Shown: piece after piece, positions 23,354 through 42,284 of the stretch
Position numbering within the stretch: position 1 is the stretch's first letter
Layout: each line of letters starts with the position of its first letter
Source of the DNA: Candidatus Fermentibacter danicus
Lineage (GTDB): Bacteria > Fermentibacterota > Fermentibacteria > Fermentibacterales > Fermentibacteraceae
Assembly: GCA_001618605.1 (NCBI GenBank)
Contig: LKHC01000001.1
Span: forward strand, 1-44,755
DNA: 44,755 bases
Reading direction: 5' to 3'
Translations under genes and position numbers: made by a program
Notes under the pieces: model-generated
Seen by the model: only the letters and a program-made list of their open reading frames with translations
Databases searched by the model: none
Told to the model about the DNA's origin: nothing

Positions 23354-23550
23354 CCGGTGTCAGAGGAAAAAACGTCAAATACGCAAATACGGGTTATAAT
23401 TGTCCCTAGAAAGCGCGCTCCGTTCGCATAACCATATTCACATCTATTTGAAGACCTGCAGTTTGCAGACGCATCCCAATTACAACATATCATTCACATG
23501 ACAATATGTTTCGCAAATGCTGCGTTTTTGACGTTTTTTCCTCTGACACC
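23354..23550 (+). repeat. MITE-like element, copy 1
   Basis: Element of about 195 bp bounded by inverted repeats: GGTGTCAGAGG followed by an A6 run on the left, and the exact complement on the right (23527-23550). The repeat is 24 bp perfect and 30 bp with one mismatch. The core contains an inner palindrome around ATCATTCACATGAC. It is non-coding and shows no obvious target duplication. It sits exactly between the divergent promoters of the GroES-like gene and the nucleotidyltransferase gene. The core is nearly the same as in copies 2 and 3. Confidence 0.88.
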
Positions 23551-23560
23551 TTTCGCGCTG

Positions 23561-23602
23561 TTGACAGTACCCATAATGGGTTGAAATATACCCGATATGG
23601 GT
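23561..23602 (+). promoter_or_regulatory. Promoter with tandem palindromic operators
   Basis: A consensus TTGACA (23561-23566) is followed 17 bp later by AAATAT. Two 13-bp palindromes, ACCCATAATGGGT (23569-23581) and ACCCGATATGGGT (23590-23602), lie 21 bp apart centre to centre, about two helical turns. The first fills the spacer and the second covers the ATG of the wHTH gene. This is the layout of a self-repressing promoter. The transcript would start next to the ATG, so it may be leaderless. Confidence 0.7.
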
Positions 23603-24259
23603 GGTAAGGCTGTGGCTCGTGGTGGAAGCCCTGTGAATGACTCCGATGCCGGGTGCGAGGGGCTTCCTCCGATCAGAATCGCCGAGACTCTGTTCTCGCG
23701 CGTCCAGATGAGAGTGCTCGCCCTGATCTACGGTAATCCCGACCGCGCATTCCAGGGGGCTGAGCTGATCCGGCTCGCCGGATCAGGAGTGGGGGCGGTT
23801 CACCGTGAGCTGAAGCGACTGGTTTCAGCAGGACTCGTATCGACGATACCCGTGGGCAAGAGGAGGCTGTACCAGGCCAACAGGAGTTGTCCCGTCTTCG
23901 AGGAACTCCACGGCCTGATAGTGAAGACGGTCGGTATCGCCCAGCCCATCCGCGAAGCCCTTGGACCCTTCTCGGAAAGAATACGCCTGGCCTTCATCTA
24001 TGGATCGACGGCGAGAGGCGAGGAGCATACCGGAAGTGACATCGATATTATGATCATCGGAGACAATCTGGCGTATCCGATGATTCTGGAGGCTCTGCAG
24101 CCCGTCGAAAAGGTCATAGGGAGGCAGATCAGCGTCAACCTGATGACACCCGCGGAGTGGGTCAGCCGGCTGGCCTCGGGAGACTCCTTCGTTTCGAGGA
24201 TCGCCGCCCGGCAGAAAATAGTTTTGACAGGATCCTTGGATGTCGTCGAATCCGCTTGA
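23597..24259 (+). CDS. Winged-helix/nucleotidyltransferase (MNT-type) fusion, probable antitoxin
   Basis: The 220-residue product has an N-terminal winged helix (about 30-95; AELIRLAGSGVGAVHRELKRL as recognition region, VSTIPVGKRRLYQ as wing). A minimal nucleotidyltransferase domain follows with GSTARGEEHTGSDIDI (136-151), giving the GS and DxD active-site residues. Such MNT proteins pair with HEPN toxins and can AMPylate them. The next gene is HEPN-like and overlaps by 20 bp. The N-terminal wHTH is a likely autoregulator binding the tandem palindromes at its own start. No ribosome site is visible. Confidence 0.83.
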   Translation: MGGKAVARGGSPVNDSDAGCEGLPPIRIAETLFSRVQMRVLALIYGNPDRAFQGAELIRLAGSGVGAVHRELKRLVSAGLVSTIPVGKRRLYQANRSCPVFEELHGLIVKTVGIAQPIREALGPFSERIRLAFIYGSTARGEEHTGSDIDIMIIGDNLAYPMILEALQPVEKVIGRQISVNLMTPAEWVSRLASGDSFVSRIAARQKIVLTGSLDVVESA

Positions 24260-24668
24260 GAAGCTGATGGGTGTCGGCCTCGTCAGGCAGGAACCCGCAC
24301 TGAGGGACGAGTTCGAGGGGCTGGTCCGATCAGGCAGGAACAGGCTTTCAGATGCCGCCAACGAGAAGCTCTCCTTCGAGAGCAGATTCGACCTTGCCTA
24401 CAACGGTGCGTTCTCTCTCTCCCTGGCTGCTCTTCGCAGGCTGGGCTACAGACCGGTGAACAGGTTCGTGGTATTCCAGGCTCTTCCACACACACTCGGA
24501 CTGGGTCCGGGAGTCTGGGCGACACTGGCGGAGTGTCACAGGCGCAGGAATTCGTCCGAGTATGAAGGCTTTCTGGTGATCGACGAGCAGTTGCTGAAGG
24601 ACCTCATCGCTTCCGCAGGCGTGGTGCTGGAGGCGGTCGAGAAGCTGGAACCCCCGCTCGAACCCTGA
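24240..24668 (+). CDS. HEPN-like protein, probable toxin partner
   Basis: The 142-residue all-helical protein has the motif CHRRRNSSEYEG (about residues 99-110), which resembles the conserved R-N-x-x-E-Y patch seen in HEPN-like partners of nucleotidyltransferases. The canonical RxxxxH RNase motif is not exact, so ribonuclease activity is uncertain. Tyr108 is a possible AMPylation site by analogy with HepT. It overlaps the wHTH-MNT gene by 20 bp, with AGGA before its ATG. The alternative is a non-toxic substrate-binding HEPN. Confidence 0.65.
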   Translation: MSSNPLEKLMGVGLVRQEPALRDEFEGLVRSGRNRLSDAANEKLSFESRFDLAYNGAFSLSLAALRRLGYRPVNRFVVFQALPHTLGLGPGVWATLAECHRRRNSSEYEGFLVIDEQLLKDLIASAGVVLEAVEKLEPPLEP

Positions 24669-24924
24669 ATGATCACGGTGGTCTGCTCGTGAAGCCAGGC
24701 AGAGTTCCCCCTGCCAGATGGATGAAGTATCCAGGCTGGAACAGATTCTTGTCTGCGATGGCTGAAATGTCTCATCCTTCCGGCGCCATTAAAAAAATCT
24801 CGGAATCCTGCAATATGGGCCAGGCAGGGCAGTTGAGCACATCGTTAAAGCTTTCCACAGCATCTGTCGCGATTGCTTCACAACGAGCGACGTCAAGATT
24901 CGAGGAGGAAACAACCGATTTCAA
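24669..24924. other. Intergenic region before macrodomain gene
   Basis: No convincing gene is visible. A short open frame (24689-24928) lacks recognisable features or a ribosome site. AGGAGG at 24903-24908 is 16 bases before the macrodomain ATG, an unusually long spacing. Confidence 0.4.
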
Positions 24925-25562
24925 ATGAAAGCTGTACTGAGAGCCATCCGTGCTGACATCACAACCCTGAACGTCGATGCGATCGTCAATGCGGCGAATT
25001 CGTCGCTACTCGGCGGGGGCGGGGTCGATGGCGCGATTCATCGAGCCGCCGGACCTGAGCTGCTTCAGGAATGCCGGCAGCTCGGAGGCTGCGAGACCGG
25101 TGACGCAAAAATCACCAAAGCCTACCGGCTCAAGGCCAGGCACGTCATTCACACGGTGGGGCCGGTCTGGCGCGGAGGGGATCATGGCGAACCGGAACTA
25201 CTGGCATCGTGCTATCGGCGATCCATTGAGTTGGCCGCTACGGCGGGTGTCGCCTCGATAGCCTTCCCGTGCATCAGTACCGGCATCTATGGATATCCTG
25301 TCGAGCCTGCAGCTCGTGTGGCGGTAGGTACGGTCACGAGCGCCCTGTGCGATTCACCGGGTATACAGGAGGTCGTCTTCTGCTGCTTCTCCGGTGATGA
25401 CCTCGCTGTCTACGAGCGTGTGCTGAACGAATCTGTGGTCTGACCGGTCGATCGAGCCGGCTCGTGCCAGCAGACAGCCGATTGCCGGCCATTCTCAAAG
25501 GCGTCGGTTTGAGGAGTGGAACCGGCATATTGACAGCGATATGCGGTGTGATGATGATGAAA
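24903..25562 (+). repeat. Long imperfect direct repeat, left copy
   Basis: Contains the macrodomain gene and a trailing hairpin. It matches 30357-31157, which is interrupted there by MITE copy 2. The first 70 bp are clearly diverged, then from 24973 the match is about 95% by my manual count, and the hairpin tail matches again. The two copies flank the HerA-NurA-methyltransferase operon in direct orientation. Confidence 0.85.
24925..25443 (+). CDS. Macrodomain protein (MacroD/YmdB type)
   Basis: The 172-residue single-domain protein binds ADP-ribose and probably removes ADP-ribosyl or O-acetyl groups. It has the diagnostic [20 protein letters not shown] (22-41), the GDAKITKAY segment, VIHTVGPVW and the phosphate loop [12 protein letters not shown]. 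It follows the MNT/HEPN pair and precedes the HerA operon, suggesting a part in the island's defence or repair chemistry. A second, start-less copy lies at 30377. Confidence 0.92.
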
Positions 25563-25649
25563 AGAAGAGGAAGGCGGTGCCGGACAGGATCAAAACACCG
25601 ACCCAGAAGAATCAATGCTCACCCGATTCTAGCCTCAACAGGAGATTAT
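25444..25649. promoter_or_regulatory. Leader region of the HerA operon with conserved hairpin
   Basis: Holds an 8-bp stem at 25521-25547 (GCATATTG-ACAG-CGATATGC, extended by ACC/GGT with one bulged G). The same stem recurs at 31114-31140 with compensating base changes. An AGGAG ribosome site lies four bases before the herA ATG. I could not pick out a firm promoter. Confidence 0.5.
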
Positions 25650-27794
25650 ATGACTGACATAGTTGCAAAGCTGACTGGAAAGCTGAATGAACCGGAATTG
25701 AGCGAGCAGTTGCAAGAAGCAAGTCAGACGTTGATAAACCTCGTTGAGGAAAGCGCCTATGTCGGTGAAGTCTACTCACTCGGATACGATGAAGCCCTTG
25801 TTCAAATACACGATTACCACCGCCAACAAGTTGGCGGCATTCCTGCGCTCTCATTCCTGATCGCAACACGCATTCGTCCGGGTGATCTCTTCGATGTGCG
25901 ACAAGAGGATGCATCCATAGTGCTTCTACGCGTACTTGACAAAGCCAACCTCCCCAATACCGAGGAGGCTCTACGTGTCCGTATAGAAACAGCCCAGCGC
26001 GTCAGTGGAGAAATCGATCGGCACTGGGATGACCAAGCTGTTATGGACCCTATGACGCATAACCTGCTCAGCTACGCCGGCGTCCGATGCCGAGTTCTGG
26101 GAACCTACTACATGGCCAACATCGGTACCGAAGACACCCAAGATTTTCGCCTTTTCTTTGGTTCGGACATCAGCAACTACTACCCCAACCGTGGCCTGAA
26201 GGTCTTCAAGCCCAGAGGCAACGTGTTGAAGACTATCATCAATTTTCGTGATCCCCGGTCGACTGTTGCTGCAATCGATGGCCGTGTACCCATTGGACAG
26301 GTTCGGTATGCTTCAAGTCACCGACCTTTTCAAGGCCTCGACGGCGTACCCGTTCAGATCACACCCACTGACCTTCTCGGGCAAAAAACCGCACTATTCG
26401 GCATGACCCGAACAGGCAAGTCAAACACAACCAAGATTATCCTCAAGTCGATCTTTGCCCTCCGGTGGGGCCAGAACCCTGCCCGTATAGGCCAGATCGT
26501 CTTTGATCCGAACGGCGAATACGCAAATGAGAACGAGCAGGACTCTGGTGGCCATGGCCTCAATGCAGAAGCAATCAAAAATGTTTGGAAGTGCGGCCCG
26601 ACCGCTCAGAATGGGCAGCTACAGAATGATGTCATTACCTACGGTATCACCAAGCACCCAAATGATCCAAATCGTCAACTGATGCTTCTAAATTTCTATC
26701 TTGACAACAACATCCAGATCGGGAAGGAAATCATTAACGATGCCCTAAGTGACCAAGGCAATGTGAAGTATCTCAGCAACTTCAGGGATGTTAGCTTTGA
26801 TCCGCCCGCCCCGAACGACCGATCGGCTCTGACTAGATACAATCGTCGCGTTCTCGCCTATCGAGCGCTGCTGTTCAAGGCCGGGTTGCAAGTGCCTAAC
26901 AGCCTGAGCCCGAATACCAGCGGTCTGTTTAATACAAAGCTCTTGGAGGCCCTGGGTAAGGACGCACAGAATGACAAGGTTAAGTCCCCCGCTGACTATG
27001 GCTCCTGTGCCACCATTCTCGCCAAGCAAAAGCCGACGTGGGCCGAGCTTACGCAAGCGTTTGAGATACTTCGTGATTACATCAACGATAAAGACTCTGG
27101 CTGGCGTGACTTCAACTCGGAATATGTCCAGACCAGCAGTTCCGGCTCATGGGCGGACAGCGATCTTGAGAAAATTCTTGAAGTGTTTGCCTATCCCAAT
27201 GGTTCCCGCCTGATCGGGCGGGTGAAAGAGCAACACACGCCAGATACAAGCTCTGACTATGCTGCTGACATCTACGAACACCTCAAGCAAGGTCGGCTGG
27301 TGATTGTCGATCAGTCGAGCGGCAACCCCGAAATCAACAAGGCATCTGCGGATCGGGTGATGCGATTGATCTTTGAGGAAAATCAAAAGCAGTTCCGGAC
27401 AGCGCAGACACCACCTGAAGTGCTGGTATATGTCGAAGAAGCCCATAACATCCTGCCATCCTCTCGAGAACTTGACTTCAAGGATATATGGGTTCGCACC
27501 GCGAAGGAAGGAGCGAAATACCATATCGGTCTGATCTATGCGACTCAAGAGGTTAGTTCGATCCAGCAAAACATCCTACGAAACACGGCCAACTGGTTTA
27601 TTGGACATCTTAACAATACAGATGAGACGCGAGAAATCCGCAAGTTTTATGACTTTGCCGACTTTGAAGGCAGTATTCTTCGCGCTCAGGACAAGGGGTT
27701 CATCCGGGTGAAAACATTGTCGAACCCATACGTCATACCCGTGCAGGTGGATCGTTTCCTTATCGAAGATATCTCGAATCATCAAGAGGCATAA
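25650..27794 (+). CDS. HerA-type DNA-translocating ATPase
   Basis: The 714-residue product has an N-terminal HAS-barrel-like region (about 35-90: [18 protein letters not shown]). The FtsK-HerA ATPase core carries Walker A GMTRTGKS (251-258) and Walker [11 protein letters not shown] (591-600), then the sensor segment YATQEVSSI and an arginine-finger-like [11 protein letters not shown]. HerA forms a hexamer that pumps DNA and works with a nuclease. The next gene, 1 bp away, encodes a NurA-like nuclease. A 230-residue insertion lies between the Walker motifs. Base composition is clearly less GC-rich than the chromosome, indicating transfer. ATG 25650 has AGGAG; the open frame extends upstream without support. 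Confidence 0.9.
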
Positions 27795-27795
27795 T

Positions 27796-29157
27796 ATGCC
27801 ATACGACGGAGAATACGCGACATACCTCCCTCTACATCGTATTTCCGAAAGCCAGAGGGTTAAAAACCTGCTTGCCCGGTCCAAGATATTGGAGAAGGCA
27901 CATGTGGCGCATACCCCCAAGCCCATAGATGCACCGCCGCAGGTGCTGAATTTGCCGAAATTTATCCTCGCAATAGACGGCAGCTACGCGGAAGTCGATG
28001 TGAAGAACGGATATCCAGGAGCCAAAGTTGGCTACTGCACCACAGCAAGTGTTCTACTTGACCTAGATCTCATCGCTGAACTGGATACCAAACGCCCAGT
28101 TGATCCCGTTGAATTCCGCAAGACAGAGCAAGCTGCAAGTGTGGATGCAGCTCTGCCTGGCAGCAATGTGGTCACGCGAAGGCAGAACTCTGCGCGCGCG
28201 TCTTTTCGAGAGGAGCTATATGACCTTTTTACCGAGATTGTTGTTGACGAAGGCGACCGGACAAACTTGCTTTCGACCTATGAAGCGCTACTCGCATTGA
28301 AGCCCACAACCAATCCCCAGAGTTGCCCATACAGCGAATCGCACGGTTGTGAAGCAAAATTCGTGGTCAAGCCTGGTTGCACGACATGCCCAACCTGCAG
28401 CCGCCCCGTGTACTCTACAGATGCCCTTCGCATTCATGAGCGATTCCGCGACACCGGAACGAACGGCGAGGCGTTCGGGCTGGTGATGCAAGTCGTGGAA
28501 CGGTTGCTAGTTATCCATTTTCTTAGGTGTTTCGAGCGACGGAATGTGCTGCAACGTCTTATATCGCTTGCCTTTTTCATCGACGGTCCAATGGCGGTTT
28601 TCGGCCCACCCGCCTGGTTGAGTTCCGCCATCAGCCTCGAACTCAAGAGATTGAATAAGAAGGTACGGACAGCGACCGACCAAGACCTTTTAATTTTAGG
28701 TATCGAAAAGACAGGAGCTTTCGTACAACACTTCGAGGAGATTGACCAGACGGAAACACCAGGCCAGCAGCTCTTCACCTCACGACAATACATGCTTCTG
28801 ACCGATGGCTATATAAAGGATCGTATCTTGCACTCCGACAGTCATAAGCGATATGGCGAAGACACATATTTCGGACGGAAATTTTTCTACAAAGCGCAGA
28901 GTGGTGCGAGGATTGTCACCAGCATTCCATTTCTATCTGAAGAACAAGATACCATCGACAGTGATGATATCTCTCTCTATCCGCAGTTTGCTGCTATTTG
29001 CACGCTCCTAGACCGTGTGGTGTCTTCACGGCACGCGAACTCGGTGTCACCGTTGATTGCAGCCAATGCACAAGCAGCTATCCCACTGCAACTCGGGTCG
29101 AGGGTGTTGACTGAACTGGCTAAGGCGCTTCTAGGGACAGCTGAGAATGGTAAGTAA
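27796..29157 (+). CDS. NurA-domain nuclease with zinc-binding insert
   Basis: The 453-residue product has NurA motif I, FILAIDGSYAEV (Asp61), a second acidic motif AFFIDGPMAVFG (Asp263) and a later TDGYIKDR, which together fit the Mn-dependent RNase H-like NurA active site. Between the first two motifs is a cysteine cluster (Cys177, 185, 195, 198, 201) not expected in archaeal NurA, probably a zinc finger for DNA or partner binding. It starts 1 bp after herA and overlaps the methyltransferase by 11 bp, so the three are one operon. NurA resects DNA with HerA in archaea. Here a defence role is inferred. Confidence 0.82.
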   Translation: MPYDGEYATYLPLHRISESQRVKNLLARSKILEKAHVAHTPKPIDAPPQVLNLPKFILAIDGSYAEVDVKNGYPGAKVGYCTTASVLLDLDLIAELDTKRPVDPVEFRKTEQAASVDAALPGSNVVTRRQNSARASFREELYDLFTEIVVDEGDRTNLLSTYEALLALKPTTNPQSCPYSESHGCEAKFVVKPGCTTCPTCSRPVYSTDALRIHERFRDTGTNGEAFGLVMQVVERLLVIHFLRCFERRNVLQRLISLAFFIDGPMAVFGPPAWLSSAISLELKRLNKKVRTATDQDLLILGIEKTGAFVQHFEEIDQTETPGQQLFTSRQYMLLTDGYIKDRILHSDSHKRYGEDTYFGRKFFYKAQSGARIVTSIPFLSEEQDTIDSDDISLYPQFAAICTLLDRVVSSRHANSVSPLIAANAQAAIPLQLGSRVLTELAKALLGTAENGK

Positions 29158-30259
29158 CAGCAGGACTTTCGGTACTGCCGCGAAGAGGTGGGAGGGGATT
29201 GGGCCATACTATGCCATGTTCCCGAACCGCTTTGCTAATAACGTTATCAAAGAACACACGGCACCAGGAGACACAGTGCTTGATCCTTTCGCTGGCCGTG
29301 GAACCTCAATCTTCAACGCGACAGTTTTGGGGCGATGTGGGTTAGGCATTGAAATAAGTCCTGTTGGATGGATCTACGCGAAGGCAAAGCTGAGCCCTGC
29401 GCCCATAGAGCAAGTCATAGAGCGCTTACATGAGATTGCAGACGCTAGCATCAAATACACCAAACTGAGCAAGTCCCAGCCGGTGTTCTTCAAGAATTGC
29501 TTCTCTCCCAATGTGCTACAATTCCTACTCTCCGCTAGAGACAGATTGGACTGGCGTAGACGCACATGCGACAGAACACTAATGGCAATCTTGTTGGTTT
29601 ATCTTCACGGTAAGGAAGGCCAAGCCCTCTCAAACCAGATGCGGCAAACAAAGGCTGTTTCCCCGAGTTATGCCATCAAGTGGTGGGATGAGCATGGAAC
29701 GAAGCCACCCGACCTCGATGTAGTTGAGTTCATGCTGCAGCGGATCTTCTGGCGTTATTCAAAAGGCGTCGTAAAAGGGAATGGTAGCCGGGTATACTTG
29801 GGCGACTGCATTACGCTACTTCCGCGATTAGCAAAGCAAATGCGTGAAAAAACCATCCCCAAGGCAGATCTTCTTCTCACATCGCCACCGTACTATGGTG
29901 TCACAAACTACTACTATGATCAGTGGCTTAGGCTTTGGTTACTCGGATTTGAAGCGACTGCCTACGTCTCTCGTGGGCCATACCAGGGACGGTTTACGCA
30001 TCAAACTATCTACCGAAATCTGCTAAAAGGGGCCTTCTGTCGTGCTGCCAATCTGGTTGCGGACGATTCTGTGATCTACGTTCGTACAAGCAAGGATCCG
30101 TTCACGAAACAAGCAACACTAGATGCGATGCTTACAGCATTTCCGAATAAAAAGTTGAATGAGATATGCCGGCCTTTCCAACAGCCCACGCAGACCCATC
30201 TTTTCGGCGATAGAACGCCAAAGCAGGGGGAAATTGACCTCATTTTACGACCATCGTAA
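29147..30259 (+). CDS. DNA amino-methyltransferase (N4-C or N6-A)
   Basis: The 370-residue SAM-dependent methyltransferase has motif I LDPFAGRGTS (45-54) near the N terminus and the catalytic motif IV LTSPPYYG (244-251) near the C terminus, with about 190 residues between that may hold the target-recognition region. TSPPY is the form seen in N4-cytosine and beta-class N6-adenine enzymes, but the order I before IV is that of alpha-type enzymes, so the protein looks circularly permuted. No restriction gene is adjacent except the HerA-NurA pair, which suggests these are the cutting partners. Confidence 0.87.
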   Translation: MVSNSRTFGTAAKRWEGIGPYYAMFPNRFANNVIKEHTAPGDTVLDPFAGRGTSIFNATVLGRCGLGIEISPVGWIYAKAKLSPAPIEQVIERLHEIADASIKYTKLSKSQPVFFKNCFSPNVLQFLLSARDRLDWRRRTCDRTLMAILLVYLHGKEGQALSNQMRQTKAVSPSYAIKWWDEHGTKPPDLDVVEFMLQRIFWRYSKGVVKGNGSRVYLGDCITLLPRLAKQMREKTIPKADLLLTSPPYYGVTNYYYDQWLRLWLLGFEATAYVSRGPYQGRFTHQTIYRNLLKGAFCRAANLVADDSVIYVRTSKDPFTKQATLDAMLTAFPNKKLNEICRPFQQPTQTHLFGDRTPKQGEIDLILRPS

Positions 30260-30376
30260 AACACGAAGCACTGTACATGTAAGATCATTACCCAATAACG
30301 TTATGCAGCAGAAGGTGCGCTGCCGCTGAGCCAGACAGTCAGGAAGCAGAAGAGCAGAAGAAGAGGAAGTATTCAA

Positions 30377-30919
30377 ATCCAGACTGCACTGAGAACCATT
30401 CGTGCAGACATCACTACTCTAAGTGTCGATGCGATCGTCAATGCGGCGAATTCGTCGCTGCTCGGCGGGGGCGGGGTCGATGGCGCGATTCATCGAGCCG
30501 CCGGACCTGAGCTGCTTCAGGAATGCCGGCAGCTCGGAGGCTGCGAGACCGGCGACGCCAAAATCACCAAAGCCTATCGGCTCAAGGCCAGGCACGTCAT
30601 TCACACGGTAGGGCCGGTCTGGCGTGGAGGGGATCATGGCGAGCCGGAACTACTGGCATCGTGCTACAGACGATCCATTGAGCTGGCCGCTACGGCGGGT
30701 GTCGCCTCGATAGCCTTCCCGTGCATCAGTACCGGCATCTATGGATATCCAGTCGAGCCCGCCGCTCGTGTGGCGGTCGGTACGGTCGCGAGCGCCCTGT
30801 GCGATTCGCCGGGTATACAGGATGTCATCTTCTGCTGCTTCTCCGGCGATGATCTCGCTGTCTACGAGCGTGTGCTGAATCCGGTGTCAGAGGAAAAAAC
30901 GTCAAATACGCAAAAATGA
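30377..30919 (+). pseudogene. Second macrodomain copy, start codon lost and 3' end formed by MITE
   Basis: The frame is open and encodes the whole macrodomain ([32 protein letters not shown]), but the codon matching the ATG of the left copy is ATC, and no ATG, GTG or TTG lies before the first motif. The last codons read [12 protein letters not shown]-stop, wholly from the left end of MITE copy 2. By my count about 22 bases differ from the left copy over the core and only about three change residues, so purifying selection or gene conversion kept the frame intact. Translation from ATC or ATT is possible but unproven; GAGGA lies nine bases upstream of ATC. Confidence 0.75.
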
Positions 30920-31078
30920 GTTGTAATTGTCCCTAGAAATCGCGCTCCGTTCGCATAACCGTATTCGCATCTACTTTAAGACCTGCAGGTTGCAGGCATA
31001 CCCCAATCACAACATGTCATTCACATGACAATATGTTTCGTAAATGCTGCGTTTTTGACGTTTTTTCCTCTGACACCA
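30881..31078 (+). repeat. MITE-like element, copy 2
   Basis: Same terminal inverted repeats and nearly the same core as copy 1, in the same orientation, about 196 bp. It interrupts the right direct repeat just inside the end of the macrodomain frame and supplies its stop codon. No target duplication is seen. Confidence 0.88.
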
Positions 31079-31357
31079 TCTCCGAGAACCAAGGCGGCGG
31101 TTTGATGAGTGGAACCGGCATGTTGACAGCAACATGCGGTGTGATGATTATGGACAAAATGTCAATCGGTTCGTGAAATTGCCACCTGATGCAGTGAGCG
31201 GAGCACTTGAGTCATGCCGCAAGGACAACGGACTTCCCGATTTATGGATGACCTCCCTGATGAACTCATATCGGAAGCCGAGCAATCGCATTCTACGGAT
31301 GCTGGCAAGCCGCACCGATGATGCGTGACGTTATCATGACGAAAAGGAAATGTGAAA
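31079..31357. other. Intergenic region with conserved hairpin
   Basis: Carries the repeat tail with the hairpin at 31114-31140 (GCATGTTG-ACAG-CAACATGC plus ACC/GGT). A short open frame at 31134-31328 has no recognisable features. AAAAGGAAA at 31342-31350 is the ribosome site of the propeller gene. Confidence 0.45.
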
Positions 31358-32647: not shown

Positions 32648-32844
32648 CCGGTGTCAGAGGAAAAAACGTCAAATACGCAAAAATGAGTTGTAATTGTCCC
32701 TAGAAAGCACGCTCTGTTAGCATGGCCGTATTCTCATCTACTTGAAGGCCTTCAGGTTGCAGGTATACCCCAATCACATCATATCATTTATATGACAATA
32801 TATTTCGTAAATGCTGCGTTTTTGACGTTTTTTCCTCTGACACC
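32648..32844 (+). repeat. MITE-like element, copy 3
   Basis: Same ends, core and orientation as copies 1 and 2, about 195 bp. The right end is only 6 bp from the encoded CCA of tRNA-Ser. Confidence 0.88.
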
Positions 32845-32850
32845 ATAAAC

Positions 32851-32935
32851 TGGCGGAGGACCGGGGATTCGAACCCCGATGGGCCTAAACCCGGCGGATT
32901 TCAAGTCCGCTGCCTTACCGTTAGACTAGTCCTCC
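32851..32935 (-). tRNA. tRNA-Ser(UGA)
   Basis: 85-nt type II tRNA on the minus strand: acceptor GGAGGAC/GTCCTCC, anticodon loop CTTGAAA (UGA), long variable arm, T arm CGGGG-TTCGAAT-CCCCG, discriminator G and encoded CCA. The accessory island abuts its 3' end, a common site of integration, but I found no second copy of the tRNA end at the other island border. Confidence 0.95.
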
Positions 32936-40227: not shown

Positions 40228-42078
40228 TTGACGGGGCTGCTCCTGTCCTGCCTTCTGCTCGGACCCGATTTATGTCCATCGGGCGGCTGCCGGGGTGATC
40301 TGCCGGTTCTTCCCGCATTTCACGAGATGGACAGCCGTGGGAGAAGCGATCCCGCCGGTCCCCTCCCTGTTGACGGGGTCGACATGGGCGGAACCCCCTC
40401 CTCTGTCGTATTCGGCTTTCTCCCGTACTGGACGGGCCACTCCTATCTCCGGTACGACCTGATCTCCGTACTGGCCTGCTTCTCGGTCGACATGGGTTCT
40501 GCCGGTACGATCACGGCATGGCACGGATTTCCAGGAGCCTTCGAAGGCCCGGTCGCGGGCGTGCATGCCGCAGGTGGTTCAGCCGTAGTCACGGTGACAT
40601 GCTTCTCCGGCTCCGGGATCCATTCGATACTCACCTCCTCGAAGGATGTCGCGCTGGAGACCCTCGTCGGGCTGCTCGACGACAACCCGGACATGGACGG
40701 TATCTGCCTCGACTTCGAAGGAGTCCTCTCGACGGACCGCGACGCGCTTACCGCATTCGTCGCGGATCTGAGGGAGGCCATGGATCAGAGCCGTCCCGGA
40801 AGCCATCTCTCGATATGCACGCCGGCGGTGGACTGGGCCGGCGCATTCGACTACGACCTGCTGGCATCGAATTGTGACGCCCTCTTCATGATGTGCTACC
40901 CCTTCCACGGCTCCTGGTCCGATGAGGCCGGCCCCTGCTGCCCGCTGACGGGATGGGGCGCCGGCCCGGAGTCCCCCGCCAACATGGCCTGGTCCCTCGG
41001 AGACTACGTGATCCACGCTCCGTCGGTCCACGATAAGCTCGTGGTCGGCCTGCCATACTACGGATTCGAATGGGAGACGGAGGACGGGAATCCCCACTCC
41101 GTTGTCGATGGATCCTGTTCGACACTCTCCTATTCGTCGCTCGCCTCACGGGCGGAGACGCACGGCAGGCTCTGGGACCCGGAGTCGTTGACGCCCTGGT
41201 ACCGATACCGGGATCCCGGATGGAGACAGGGCTGGTTCGACGATCCGGGATCGCTTTCCCTGAAGTACAGCCTGATACTGGGGTCCGGATTCCAGGGGGC
41301 GGGGATCTGGGCTCTCGGCTACGACGGGTCCAGACCCGAGCTGTGGAACTGCATCGAGCAGTGGTTCACGGAACCGCCTCAACGCGACAGGATGACGGAC
41401 AACCTCGAAGCGACGTTCACCCTCCACGGGCCGTCCAACTACTGGCACTACAGCGGAACCGGGATGCTCTACAGCCACTTCTACACGTTCACCGTCGGAT
41501 CAGGGCCGGACGTGAACTGGGCCGAATGGCGGTTCGACCTCCCCGATTCGAGCGCTTACGGCATGCTCGAGGCATGGGTGCCCGAGGGTTCACAGGCATC
41601 GGCCGTCTACAGGATCCACCACGGCGGAGCGATCGACACGGTGCTGGTGGATCAGGCCGGGCTGCAGGGCTGCTGGGCGATGCTCGGGGGGCCATACCGG
41701 GCGATGGACGGCCTCTCGGTGCTGCTGGGAGACAGGGCTGGAACTGCAGGCAGAAGGCTGGGCTTCGACGCGATACGCTTCCAGGAATGCATCGGAATCG
41801 CCCCCGGAGATGATCCGCCCACGGGCCTGACCCTGATGCCGGCCGGGTCGAATCCCGCCCGGGAGTTCACGATATCGTGTCCTCCTGCGGGCGGGGAGTC
41901 GGAACTGCTCATTCTCGACTGCTCGGGAAGGATCGTCTTCAGGGCGCCTGTCGCGGCGGGGGAGAACCGGACGGTCTCCTGGCCTGCGAGCCCGATGCCG
42001 CAGGGCGTCTATCTCGCGATCCTCGCCGGCCCCCGCTCCCTCCTAACCGCTCCGCTCCGCCTCGTCCTCCTCCGCTGA
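40228..42078 (+). CDS. Secreted GH18-type glycosidase with golvesin-like and C-terminal sorting domains
   Basis: The 616-residue product has an N-terminal export signal (short, MTGLLLSCLLLG) and a GH18 barrel (about 58-380). DGICLDFE (157-164) is the family's DxxDxDxE-type motif with Glu164 as the acid. YYGFEWE and the GAGIWALGYDG strand mark the end of the barrel. A beta domain with VNWAEWRFDLP and GRRLGFDAIRF follows, golvesin/xanthan-lyase-like. The last 80 residues (SNPAREFTISCP, GRIVFRAP, PMPQGVYLAIL) match type IX-like sorting domains. Chitinase or spore-cortex-like activity is possible. The start is TTG, set by upstream GGGAG. Confidence 0.82.
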   Translation: MTGLLLSCLLLGPDLCPSGGCRGDLPVLPAFHEMDSRGRSDPAGPLPVDGVDMGGTPSSVVFGFLPYWTGHSYLRYDLISVLACFSVDMGSAGTITAWHGFPGAFEGPVAGVHAAGGSAVVTVTCFSGSGIHSILTSSKDVALETLVGLLDDNPDMDGICLDFEGVLSTDRDALTAFVADLREAMDQSRPGSHLSICTPAVDWAGAFDYDLLASNCDALFMMCYPFHGSWSDEAGPCCPLTGWGAGPESPANMAWSLGDYVIHAPSVHDKLVVGLPYYGFEWETEDGNPHSVVDGSCSTLSYSSLASRAETHGRLWDPESLTPWYRYRDPGWRQGWFDDPGSLSLKYSLILGSGFQGAGIWALGYDGSRPELWNCIEQWFTEPPQRDRMTDNLEATFTLHGPSNYWHYSGTGMLYSHFYTFTVGSGPDVNWAEWRFDLPDSSAYGMLEAWVPEGSQASAVYRIHHGGAIDTVLVDQAGLQGCWAMLGGPYRAMDGLSVLLGDRAGTAGRRLGFDAIRFQECIGIAPGDDPPTGLTLMPAGSNPAREFTISCPPAGGESELLILDCSGRIVFRAPVAAGENRTVSWPASPMPQGVYLAILAGPRSLLTAPLRLVLLR

Positions 42079-42080
42079 GT

Positions 42081-42280
42081 CCGGTGTCAGAGGAAAAAAC
42101 GTCAAATACTCAAAAATGGCTTGATTTCCCCTCCGCATAATGCTGTCTGTCAGCATGAATCAGATAATGAGAAAGCGGTAAATAGCTGTGGAAGGGAATC
42201 AACGCCGAAGCGACAATCTATTATACACTGCTTCTTATTCAGAAATCCTGCGTTTTTGACGTTTTTTCCTCTGACACCGG
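42081..42280 (+). repeat. MITE-like element, copy 4 with different core
   Basis: The same terminal inverted repeats and about the same length (196 bp) as copies 1-3, but the internal 140 bp share no clear match with them. TTGATTTCCC near the left and GGGAATCAA near the right form an inner inverted pair. It fits exactly between two convergent stop codons, 2 bp after the GH18 stop and 4 bp from the PEGA gene stop. Each end presents a T6 run on one strand, so it may work as a bidirectional terminator. Confidence 0.82.
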
Positions 42281-42284
42281 ACGG

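What the first reader, a model, noticed from the sequence alone, without database searches (positions are those of the whole stretch)
25650..30259. Compact HerA - NurA - DNA methyltransferase operon in an accessory island
Seen: three genes in one operon (1-bp gap, then an 11-bp overlap): HerA ATPase with both Walker motifs, a NurA-family nuclease with a five-cysteine insert, and an amino-methyltransferase. Their composition is less GC-rich than the flanks. Known: HerA-NurA resects DNA in archaea, and HerA pairs with other effectors in phage defence. Inferred: the methyltransferase marks self DNA and HerA-NurA destroys unmarked DNA, a restriction-modification-like system in which a DNA pump plus exonuclease replaces a restriction endonuclease. 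The zinc insert and the permuted methyltransferase motif order are distinctive.
Basis: partly seen in the sequence, partly recalled or inferred. Interest (0 to 1): 0.78.

Follow-up and report, generated by a model that had tools for sequence, protein, structure and literature searches.

The report
HerA-NurA-methyltransferase restriction-like defence operon
Three neighbouring genes for a DNA pump, a DNA-shredding nuclease and a DNA-marking enzyme form a mobile unit found across many bacteria and some archaea, and most likely let the cell destroy DNA that lacks its own chemical mark, as restriction enzymes do but with a motor-driven shredder in place of a cutter.

Summary
HerA (25650-27794), NurA (27796-29157) and an amino-methyltransferase (29147-30259) form a tight operon in a low-GC island.

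The arrangement recurs. Of 80 NurA-family loci from about 26 phyla, including archaea, 78 have HerA next door and 73 have the same methyltransferase directly downstream. Distant relatives that lack it carry an unrelated DNA methyltransferase instead: in 21 of 21 newly found loci some DNA methyltransferase accompanies the pair, with at least six swaps of methyltransferase type on the HerA+NurA tree.

Among solved structures, HerA is closest to TdpA and the NurA model to TdpB, the translocase-nuclease pair of the phosphorothioate-gated TdpABC defence system. The best reading is a methylation-gated counterpart of TdpABC, a restriction-modification-like system. It resembles TdpABC but is not a member, because no sulfur-modifying gene is present.

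A new feature is that HerA residues ~381-520 are an exchangeable cassette, swapped in three clades without matching change in NurA or the methyltransferase.

The main rival is DNA donation, as in Thermus ICETh1, whose operon has the same three gene types. No activity has been tested.

The parts
25650..27794 (+). HerA-family hexameric DNA translocase (714 aa)
   Evidence: Pfam DUF87 5.7e-11; closest solved chain TdpA 8wet, phmmer 1.8e-18 against 2.5e-7 for the next
26400..26426 (+). HerA Walker [10 protein letters not shown]
   Evidence: position; largely invariant in the family
26790..27209 (+). Exchangeable HerA cassette, residues 381-520, between Walker A and Walker B
   Evidence: 31-35% identical between two alleles in near relatives whose remaining HerA is 81-87% identical
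27426..27449 (+). HerA Walker B, VYVEEAHN
   Evidence: position; conserved
27796..29157 (+). NurA-family nuclease (453 aa)
   Evidence: Pfam NurA 1e-9; AlphaFold model pLDDT 90.7; Foldseek best TdpB 8wfd_G 9.2e-7, then Sulfolobus, Deinococcus and Thermococcus NurA
28324..28398 (+). NurA four-cysteine zinc-ribbon-like insert (C177, C185, C198, C201)
   Evidence: four cysteines in about 55 of 76 relatives, lost in one clade except C198
29147..30259 (+). DNA amino-methyltransferase (370 aa), probably N4-cytosine (motif IV TSPPY)
   Evidence: Pfam N6_N4_Mtase 3e-12; motif I D46 P47 F48 G50 and motif IV T245-Y249 invariant in 56 members; profile hits to N4-cytosine MTases 8s9n and PvuII; model pLDDT 92

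Best explanation
This is a restriction-modification-like anti-invader system. The methyltransferase marks the host's own DNA, probably as N4-methylcytosine at a short site. A HerA hexamer encircles double-stranded DNA, most likely entering at an end, and pumps it into a NurA dimer that degrades it. It works like TdpABC, where (as I recall) phosphorothioation instead of methylation blocks the TdpA-TdpB translocase-nuclease. Shown here: protein identities, near-obligatory coupling to a DNA methyltransferase, repeated replacement of that methyltransferase, horizontal spread, and an exchangeable HerA cassette. Inferred: that methylation protects, that degradation is the output, and that the HerA cassette is a sensing or inhibitor-evasion surface.
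For: (1) Linkage: 78/80 loci have HerA, 73/80 the same MTase directly downstream, 74/80 somewhere in the locus. (2) Non-homologous replacement: loci lacking the core MTase have a D12/Dam-class or beta-class N6_N4 MTase, usually immediately upstream of HerA, or sit in a Type I R-M operon; at least 6 type changes on the HerA+NurA tree. (3) HerA and NurA are closest among solved structures to TdpA and TdpB. (4) Gene distance matrices correlate at r 0.85-0.90, Mantel 0/999. (5) Accessory behaviour: 2/42 genomes of the window's phylum, 2/392, 13/396 and 10/400 in three others; the nearest relatives of the window's NurA are Planctomycetota and Myxococcota, not its own phylum. (6) A Vibrio phage carries HerA-NurA beside its integrase with a D12 MTase, and a phage contig carries the core MTase without HerA-NurA, as expected of an anti-restriction gene. 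(7) The window operon lies about 1 kb from a PADLOC candidate defence pair, PDC-M05A/B.
Against: No activity, methylation or phage assay exists. Three cyanobacterial plasmids carry HerA-NurA with no recognisable MTase within about 7 kb. The only studied HerA-NurA-methylase operon, ICETh1 of Thermus, serves DNA donation, and loss of its methylase had only minor effects on transfer (PMC5365140, PMC7767461). How a HerA ring or NurA would sense base methylation is unknown. Broken HerA/NurA with intact MTase occurs 8 times and the reverse 0 times, but allowing for gene length this has p about 0.11. Defence genes were seen in the flanks but not tested against a null.
Confidence: 0.7

Rival explanations
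1. DNA transfer module: HerA pumps donor DNA out, NurA trims it and the methylase protects or marks it, as in the Thermus ICETh1 transjugation operon (type IIG enzyme - NurA - TdtA - N4/N6 methylase).
For: ICETh1 has the same three gene types; TdtA is required for DNA donation and loss of its NurA or type IIG partner lowers donation by several orders of magnitude (PMC5365140). Some relatives lie on plasmids and phages.
Against: No integrase or type IIG gene in the window island. Over 224 neighbouring genes in about 75 loci no conserved transfer gene appears; the most frequent family is a PIN_8 gene in 6 members of one clade. Transfer does not explain why non-homologous MTases keep being recruited, and ICETh1's methylase is nearly dispensable for transfer (PMC7767461).
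Confidence: 0.13
2. DNA repair: HerA-NurA processes double-strand breaks and the methylation acts as a stop mark, like Chi for RecBCD, without a defence role.
For: HerA-NurA of archaea and Deinococcus is studied as an end-processing complex (PMC9960219).
Against: Sporadic distribution and horizontal spread; no Mre11/Rad50 gene in the operon; MTase swapping is not expected of a housekeeping repair mark. A 2026 study argues that even Thermococcus HerA-NurA does not resect and may act in antiviral defence (PMC12977600).
Confidence: 0.08
3. Abortive-infection variant: HerA-NurA is held inactive and triggered by a phage product through the exchangeable HerA cassette, then destroys DNA broadly; the MTase only limits damage to the host or tunes the threshold.
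For: The HerA cassette is swapped between close relatives without any matching change in NurA or MTase, as for a sensor of diverse triggers or a surface escaping inhibitors; HerA-Sir2 and HerA-DUF4297 systems are antiviral (PMC11291478, PMC12977600).
Against: Coupling to a DNA MTase is nearly universal and convergent, which an abortive system would not need.
Confidence: 0.07

Closest known systems
TdpABC, phosphorothioate-gated translocase-nuclease defence (An et al. 2025, doi 10.1038/s41589-024-01832-w; paper not held, content recalled; PDB 8wet, 8wfd)
   Same: HerA-type hexameric ATPase plus NurA-like nuclease plus a DNA-modifying enzyme; TdpA and TdpB are the closest solved chains to the window's HerA and NurA.
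   Different: Modification is by a SAM methyltransferase instead of TdpC; NurA has a zinc-ribbon-like insert; HerA is longer (714 against 586 residues) and has an exchangeable cassette.
ICETh1 tdtA operon of Thermus thermophilus (PMC5365140, PMC7767461)
   Same: HerA-family ATPase, NurA-like nuclease and an N4/N6 methylase (PF01555) in one operon of a tRNA-associated mobile element.
   Different: NurA precedes the ATPase, a type IIG enzyme and an integrase are present, and the tested role is DNA donation.
Archaeal and Deinococcus HerA-NurA
   Same: Same two protein families; structural matches 2ygk, 7f6d, 9x1m.
   Different: No methyltransferase partner in the operon (established knowledge); end-processing or possibly antiviral role (PMC9960219, PMC12977600).
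HerA-Sir2 and HerA-DUF4297 defence pairs
   Same: HerA ATPase paired with an effector in phage defence.
   Different: Different effectors, no DNA modification, HerA only distantly similar.
Type I-III restriction-modification
   Same: A DNA methyltransferase coupled to a DNA-destroying machine, ATP-driven in Types I and III.
   Different: No HsdR/Res helicase, no specificity subunit, no restriction endonuclease; a HerA ring and an RNase H-fold NurA take their place.

Membership tests
HerA (DUF87) | HerA/FtsK ATPase domain with Walker A, Walker B and conserved C-terminal motifs | tested here: met
   Pfam 5.7e-11; motifs at 251-259 and 593-600
NurA | NurA profile and fold | tested here: met
   Pfam 1e-9, 49 of 62 relatives match; the 14 best Foldseek hits are TdpB, NurA structures and TM1739
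DNA amino-methyltransferase | Motif I and motif IV (S/D/N)PP(Y/F) | tested here: met
   both invariant in 56 aligned members
TdpABC | TdpA-like translocase and TdpB-like nuclease | tested here: met
   closest solved chains
TdpABC | TdpC phosphorothioation enzyme | tested here: not met
   no sulfur-modifying gene recognised in the island; the third gene is a methyltransferase
ICETh1-type transjugation element | Integrase and type IIG restriction enzyme with the tdtA operon | tested here: not met
   absent from island 23.35-32.85 kb
Restriction-modification (any type) | Modification protects DNA from the linked nuclease | not testable with these tools
   needs methylation mapping and a degradation assay
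Restriction-modification Type I-III | HsdR/Res or restriction endonuclease subunit | tested here: not met
   none in the operon; only NurA
MADS (mad1-8) | Eight-gene mad operon including the mad8 ATPase | tested here: not met
   HerA matches mad8 at 4.1e-13 but the other island genes match no mad model

The most novel reading that the evidence does not exclude
HerA-NurA-methyltransferase units are a widespread, unnamed type of restriction-modification system in which methylation gates a processive translocase-nuclease. The modifying enzyme has been replaced several times by unrelated methyltransferases, and sensing of invaders (or escape from their inhibitors) lies in a recombining cassette of HerA that is independent of the methylation site.
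Probability: 0.5. Interest if true: 0.85.

Novelty: new variant of a known kind. Interest (0 to 1): 0.72.

Why it matters
If right, restriction-modification includes a branch in which methylation licenses DNA against a motor-driven nuclease rather than a site-specific cutter, spread over bacteria and archaea and not modelled in the PADLOC library scanned here. It would generalise the phosphorothioate TdpABC principle to base methylation, give bacterial HerA-NurA pairs a role outside repair, and pose testable questions: how a DNA-encircling ring reads a base mark, and what the swapped HerA cassette senses.

Tried and rejected
PDB sequence searches with NurA, alone or as a profile, found only chance hits; structure prediction was needed. 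The seven-sequence NurA alignment was too diverse for the genome scan; a four-sequence one worked. A macro-domain gene flanks the operon on both sides, but no other locus has it, so it is not part of the system. The 195-bp inverted-repeat element at the island edges is dispersed through the genome and not specific to the operon. Asymmetry of gene decay (8 against 0) favours R-M but is not significant once gene length is allowed for. Hypervariability of the MTase target region as the specificity signal was considered: its 181-240 segment is only mildly more variable, with no allele swap. Literature searches found no paper describing this trio as a defence system in the held library; subscription papers, including the Tdp paper and Iyer 2004, could not be read. 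Scan of Rfam and promoter/terminator patterns added nothing.
Full report
WHAT IS THERE. The window holds three overlapping or nearly touching genes on the + strand: HerA 25650-27794, NurA 27796-29157, methyltransferase 29147-30259. Profile scans identify HerA (DUF87, 5.7e-11), NurA (1e-9) and an N6_N4 DNA methylase (3e-12). The operon is 50-52% GC; the genome outside the island is 62-69%. The island runs from about 23.35 kb to a tRNA-Ser at 32851-32935. It also holds a nucleotidyltransferase/HEPN-like pair matching PADLOC candidate PDC-M05A/B (8e-71 and 6e-53), a macro-domain gene and a 370-aa protein of unknown family.

HOW THE OPERON SITS. It lies between two direct repeats of a macro-domain region (24920-25566 and 30372-31159; 87-92% identical in the matched parts). 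The second copy is truncated and interrupted by a 195-bp element with 30-bp inverted repeats. That element occurs three times in the island and, in its end sequences, at several other genomic places, so it is a general repeat and not part of the system. No other locus has the macro gene beside the operon. The simplest reading, inferred, is that the operon arrived by recombination at the macro-domain gene.

IS THE TRIO REAL ELSEWHERE. A scan of one genome per prokaryote species with a four-member NurA alignment returned the best 80 of 104 relatives. HerA is adjacent in 78; the same methyltransferase family lies immediately downstream in 73, and in 72 of the 76 loci with room to see it. They span about 26 phyla including haloarchaea and Methanoperedenaceae. 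Distance matrices of the three proteins correlate at 0.85-0.90, with 0 of 999 permutations as high. The system is rare and patchy: 2 of 42 genomes in the window's own phylum, and 2/392, 13/396 and 10/400 in samples of three other phyla. The window's nearest relatives are Planctomycetota and Myxococcota (78-85% in NurA), while the other member of its own phylum is 40%. That is horizontal spread.

THE EXCEPTIONS. Loci without the core methyltransferase nearly all have another one. L083 and L090 have a D12/Dam-class gene directly upstream of HerA, and L087 an N6_N4 methylase downstream. The phylum samples gave 21 loci not already in the set, found by NurA alone: 8 have the core methyltransferase and 13 have another (six D12, six beta-class N6_N4, one Type I HsdM in an HsdR-HsdM-HsdS operon), in eleven cases directly upstream of HerA in the same direction (the L125 gene was assigned by similarity to L124, not scanned itself). 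On the HerA+NurA tree, methyltransferase type changes at least six times. Only three related cyanobacterial plasmids have none within about 7 kb. Repeated recruitment of unrelated methyltransferases is the strongest evidence that DNA methylation, not one particular protein, is what HerA-NurA needs.

WHAT THE PROTEINS RESEMBLE. The window HerA's best solved match is TdpA (1.8e-18; next 2.5e-7; the profile search agrees). The NurA model (pLDDT 90.7) matches TdpB best (9.2e-7), then Sulfolobus, Deinococcus and Thermococcus NurA. TdpABC is a defence system in which, as I recall from a paper not held here (doi 10.1038/s41589-024-01832-w, reference seen), phosphorothioate modification blocks TdpA-TdpB. 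The methyltransferase model (pLDDT 92) is an ordinary class I fold, with E. coli Dam the best DNA-methyltransferase match; motif IV is TSPPY in every member, which by family knowledge favours N4-cytosine. NurA carries a zinc-ribbon-like insert with four cysteines conserved in about 55 of 76 relatives; one clade has lost them, so the ribbon cannot be essential to the family.

A SWAPPED CASSETTE IN HERA. Between close relatives, HerA residues ~381-520 fall into two alleles. The window and L015 share one (70%), L013 and L014 the other (77%), with 31-35% between alleles, although the rest of HerA is 81-87% identical. Of 50 pairs with HerA core identity of 80% or more, cassette identity is bimodal: 19 pairs at 32-46%, 31 pairs at 54-98%. 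The same swap occurs in three separate clades, and NurA and the methyltransferase show no comparable dip (lowest 100-aa windows 64-82% and 59-87%). In the cassette tree L053 and L062 group with a Flavobacterium sequence, so exchange between lineages is likely. A sensor, or a surface escaping phage inhibitors, is the best guess. This is inference; HerA was not modelled.

MECHANISM AND RIVALS. I favour a restriction-modification-like system (0.7): methylation marks self, and HerA feeds unmarked DNA to NurA. A Vibrio phage with HerA-NurA beside its integrase plus a D12 methyltransferase, and a phage contig with the core methyltransferase alone near a tape-measure gene, fit defence and counter-defence. 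The main rival is DNA donation as in Thermus ICETh1, which has the same gene types (PMC5365140, PMC7767461); against it, 224 flanking genes show no conserved transfer gene and the island has no integrase or type IIG enzyme. Repair and abortive-infection readings are less likely. Gene decay is lopsided as expected for R-M (8 against 0) but not significantly so.

NOVELTY. I found no description of this trio as a defence system in the held library, and no PADLOC model matches the NurA protein convincingly. The principle is known from TdpABC, so this is a new variant of a known kind; the methyltransferase swapping and the HerA cassette appear to be new observations, as far as the held literature shows.

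Noticed in passing
window 23356-23550, 30883-31077, 32650-32844: A 195-bp element with 30-bp near-perfect inverted repeats (GGTGTCAGAGGAAAAAACGTCAAATACGCA) occurs three times in the island; its ends recur at several other places in the genome (contigs 29, 92, 95, 102, 105, 110 and window 42078-42282), so it looks like a MITE.
   Followed up: partly
window 24920-25566 and 30372-31159: Macro-domain gene duplicated on both sides of the operon, the second copy truncated and interrupted by the repeat element.
   Followed up: partly
window 23597-24668: Overlapping nucleotidyltransferase and HEPN-like pair matching PADLOC candidate PDC-M05A/B, probably a toxin-antitoxin type defence pair.
   Followed up: partly
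L065 3810-4844 and the equivalent genes in L066, L067, L069, L073, L089: In a Bacteroidota-centred clade a PIN_8-domain gene lies directly upstream of HerA, a likely fourth component there.
   Followed up: partly
L087 8389-11055, L128 7480-10964: In some distant relatives HerA-NurA is followed by a UvrD helicase; in L128 a PD-(D/E)XK nuclease gene comes next, an AddAB-like addition.
   Followed up: no
L124 7361-10489 and L125 7372-10500: An AAA/SMC-type ATPase and a 297-aa protein (weak HNH match in L124) follow HerA-NurA directly, resembling a Septu pair.
   Followed up: no
L134 5977-7104: Phage contig with the core methyltransferase but no HerA-NurA, near a tape-measure gene; candidate anti-restriction gene.
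   Followed up: partly
L121 3941-12771: HerA-NurA immediately followed by a complete Type I R-M operon (HsdR, HsdM, HsdS).
   Followed up: no
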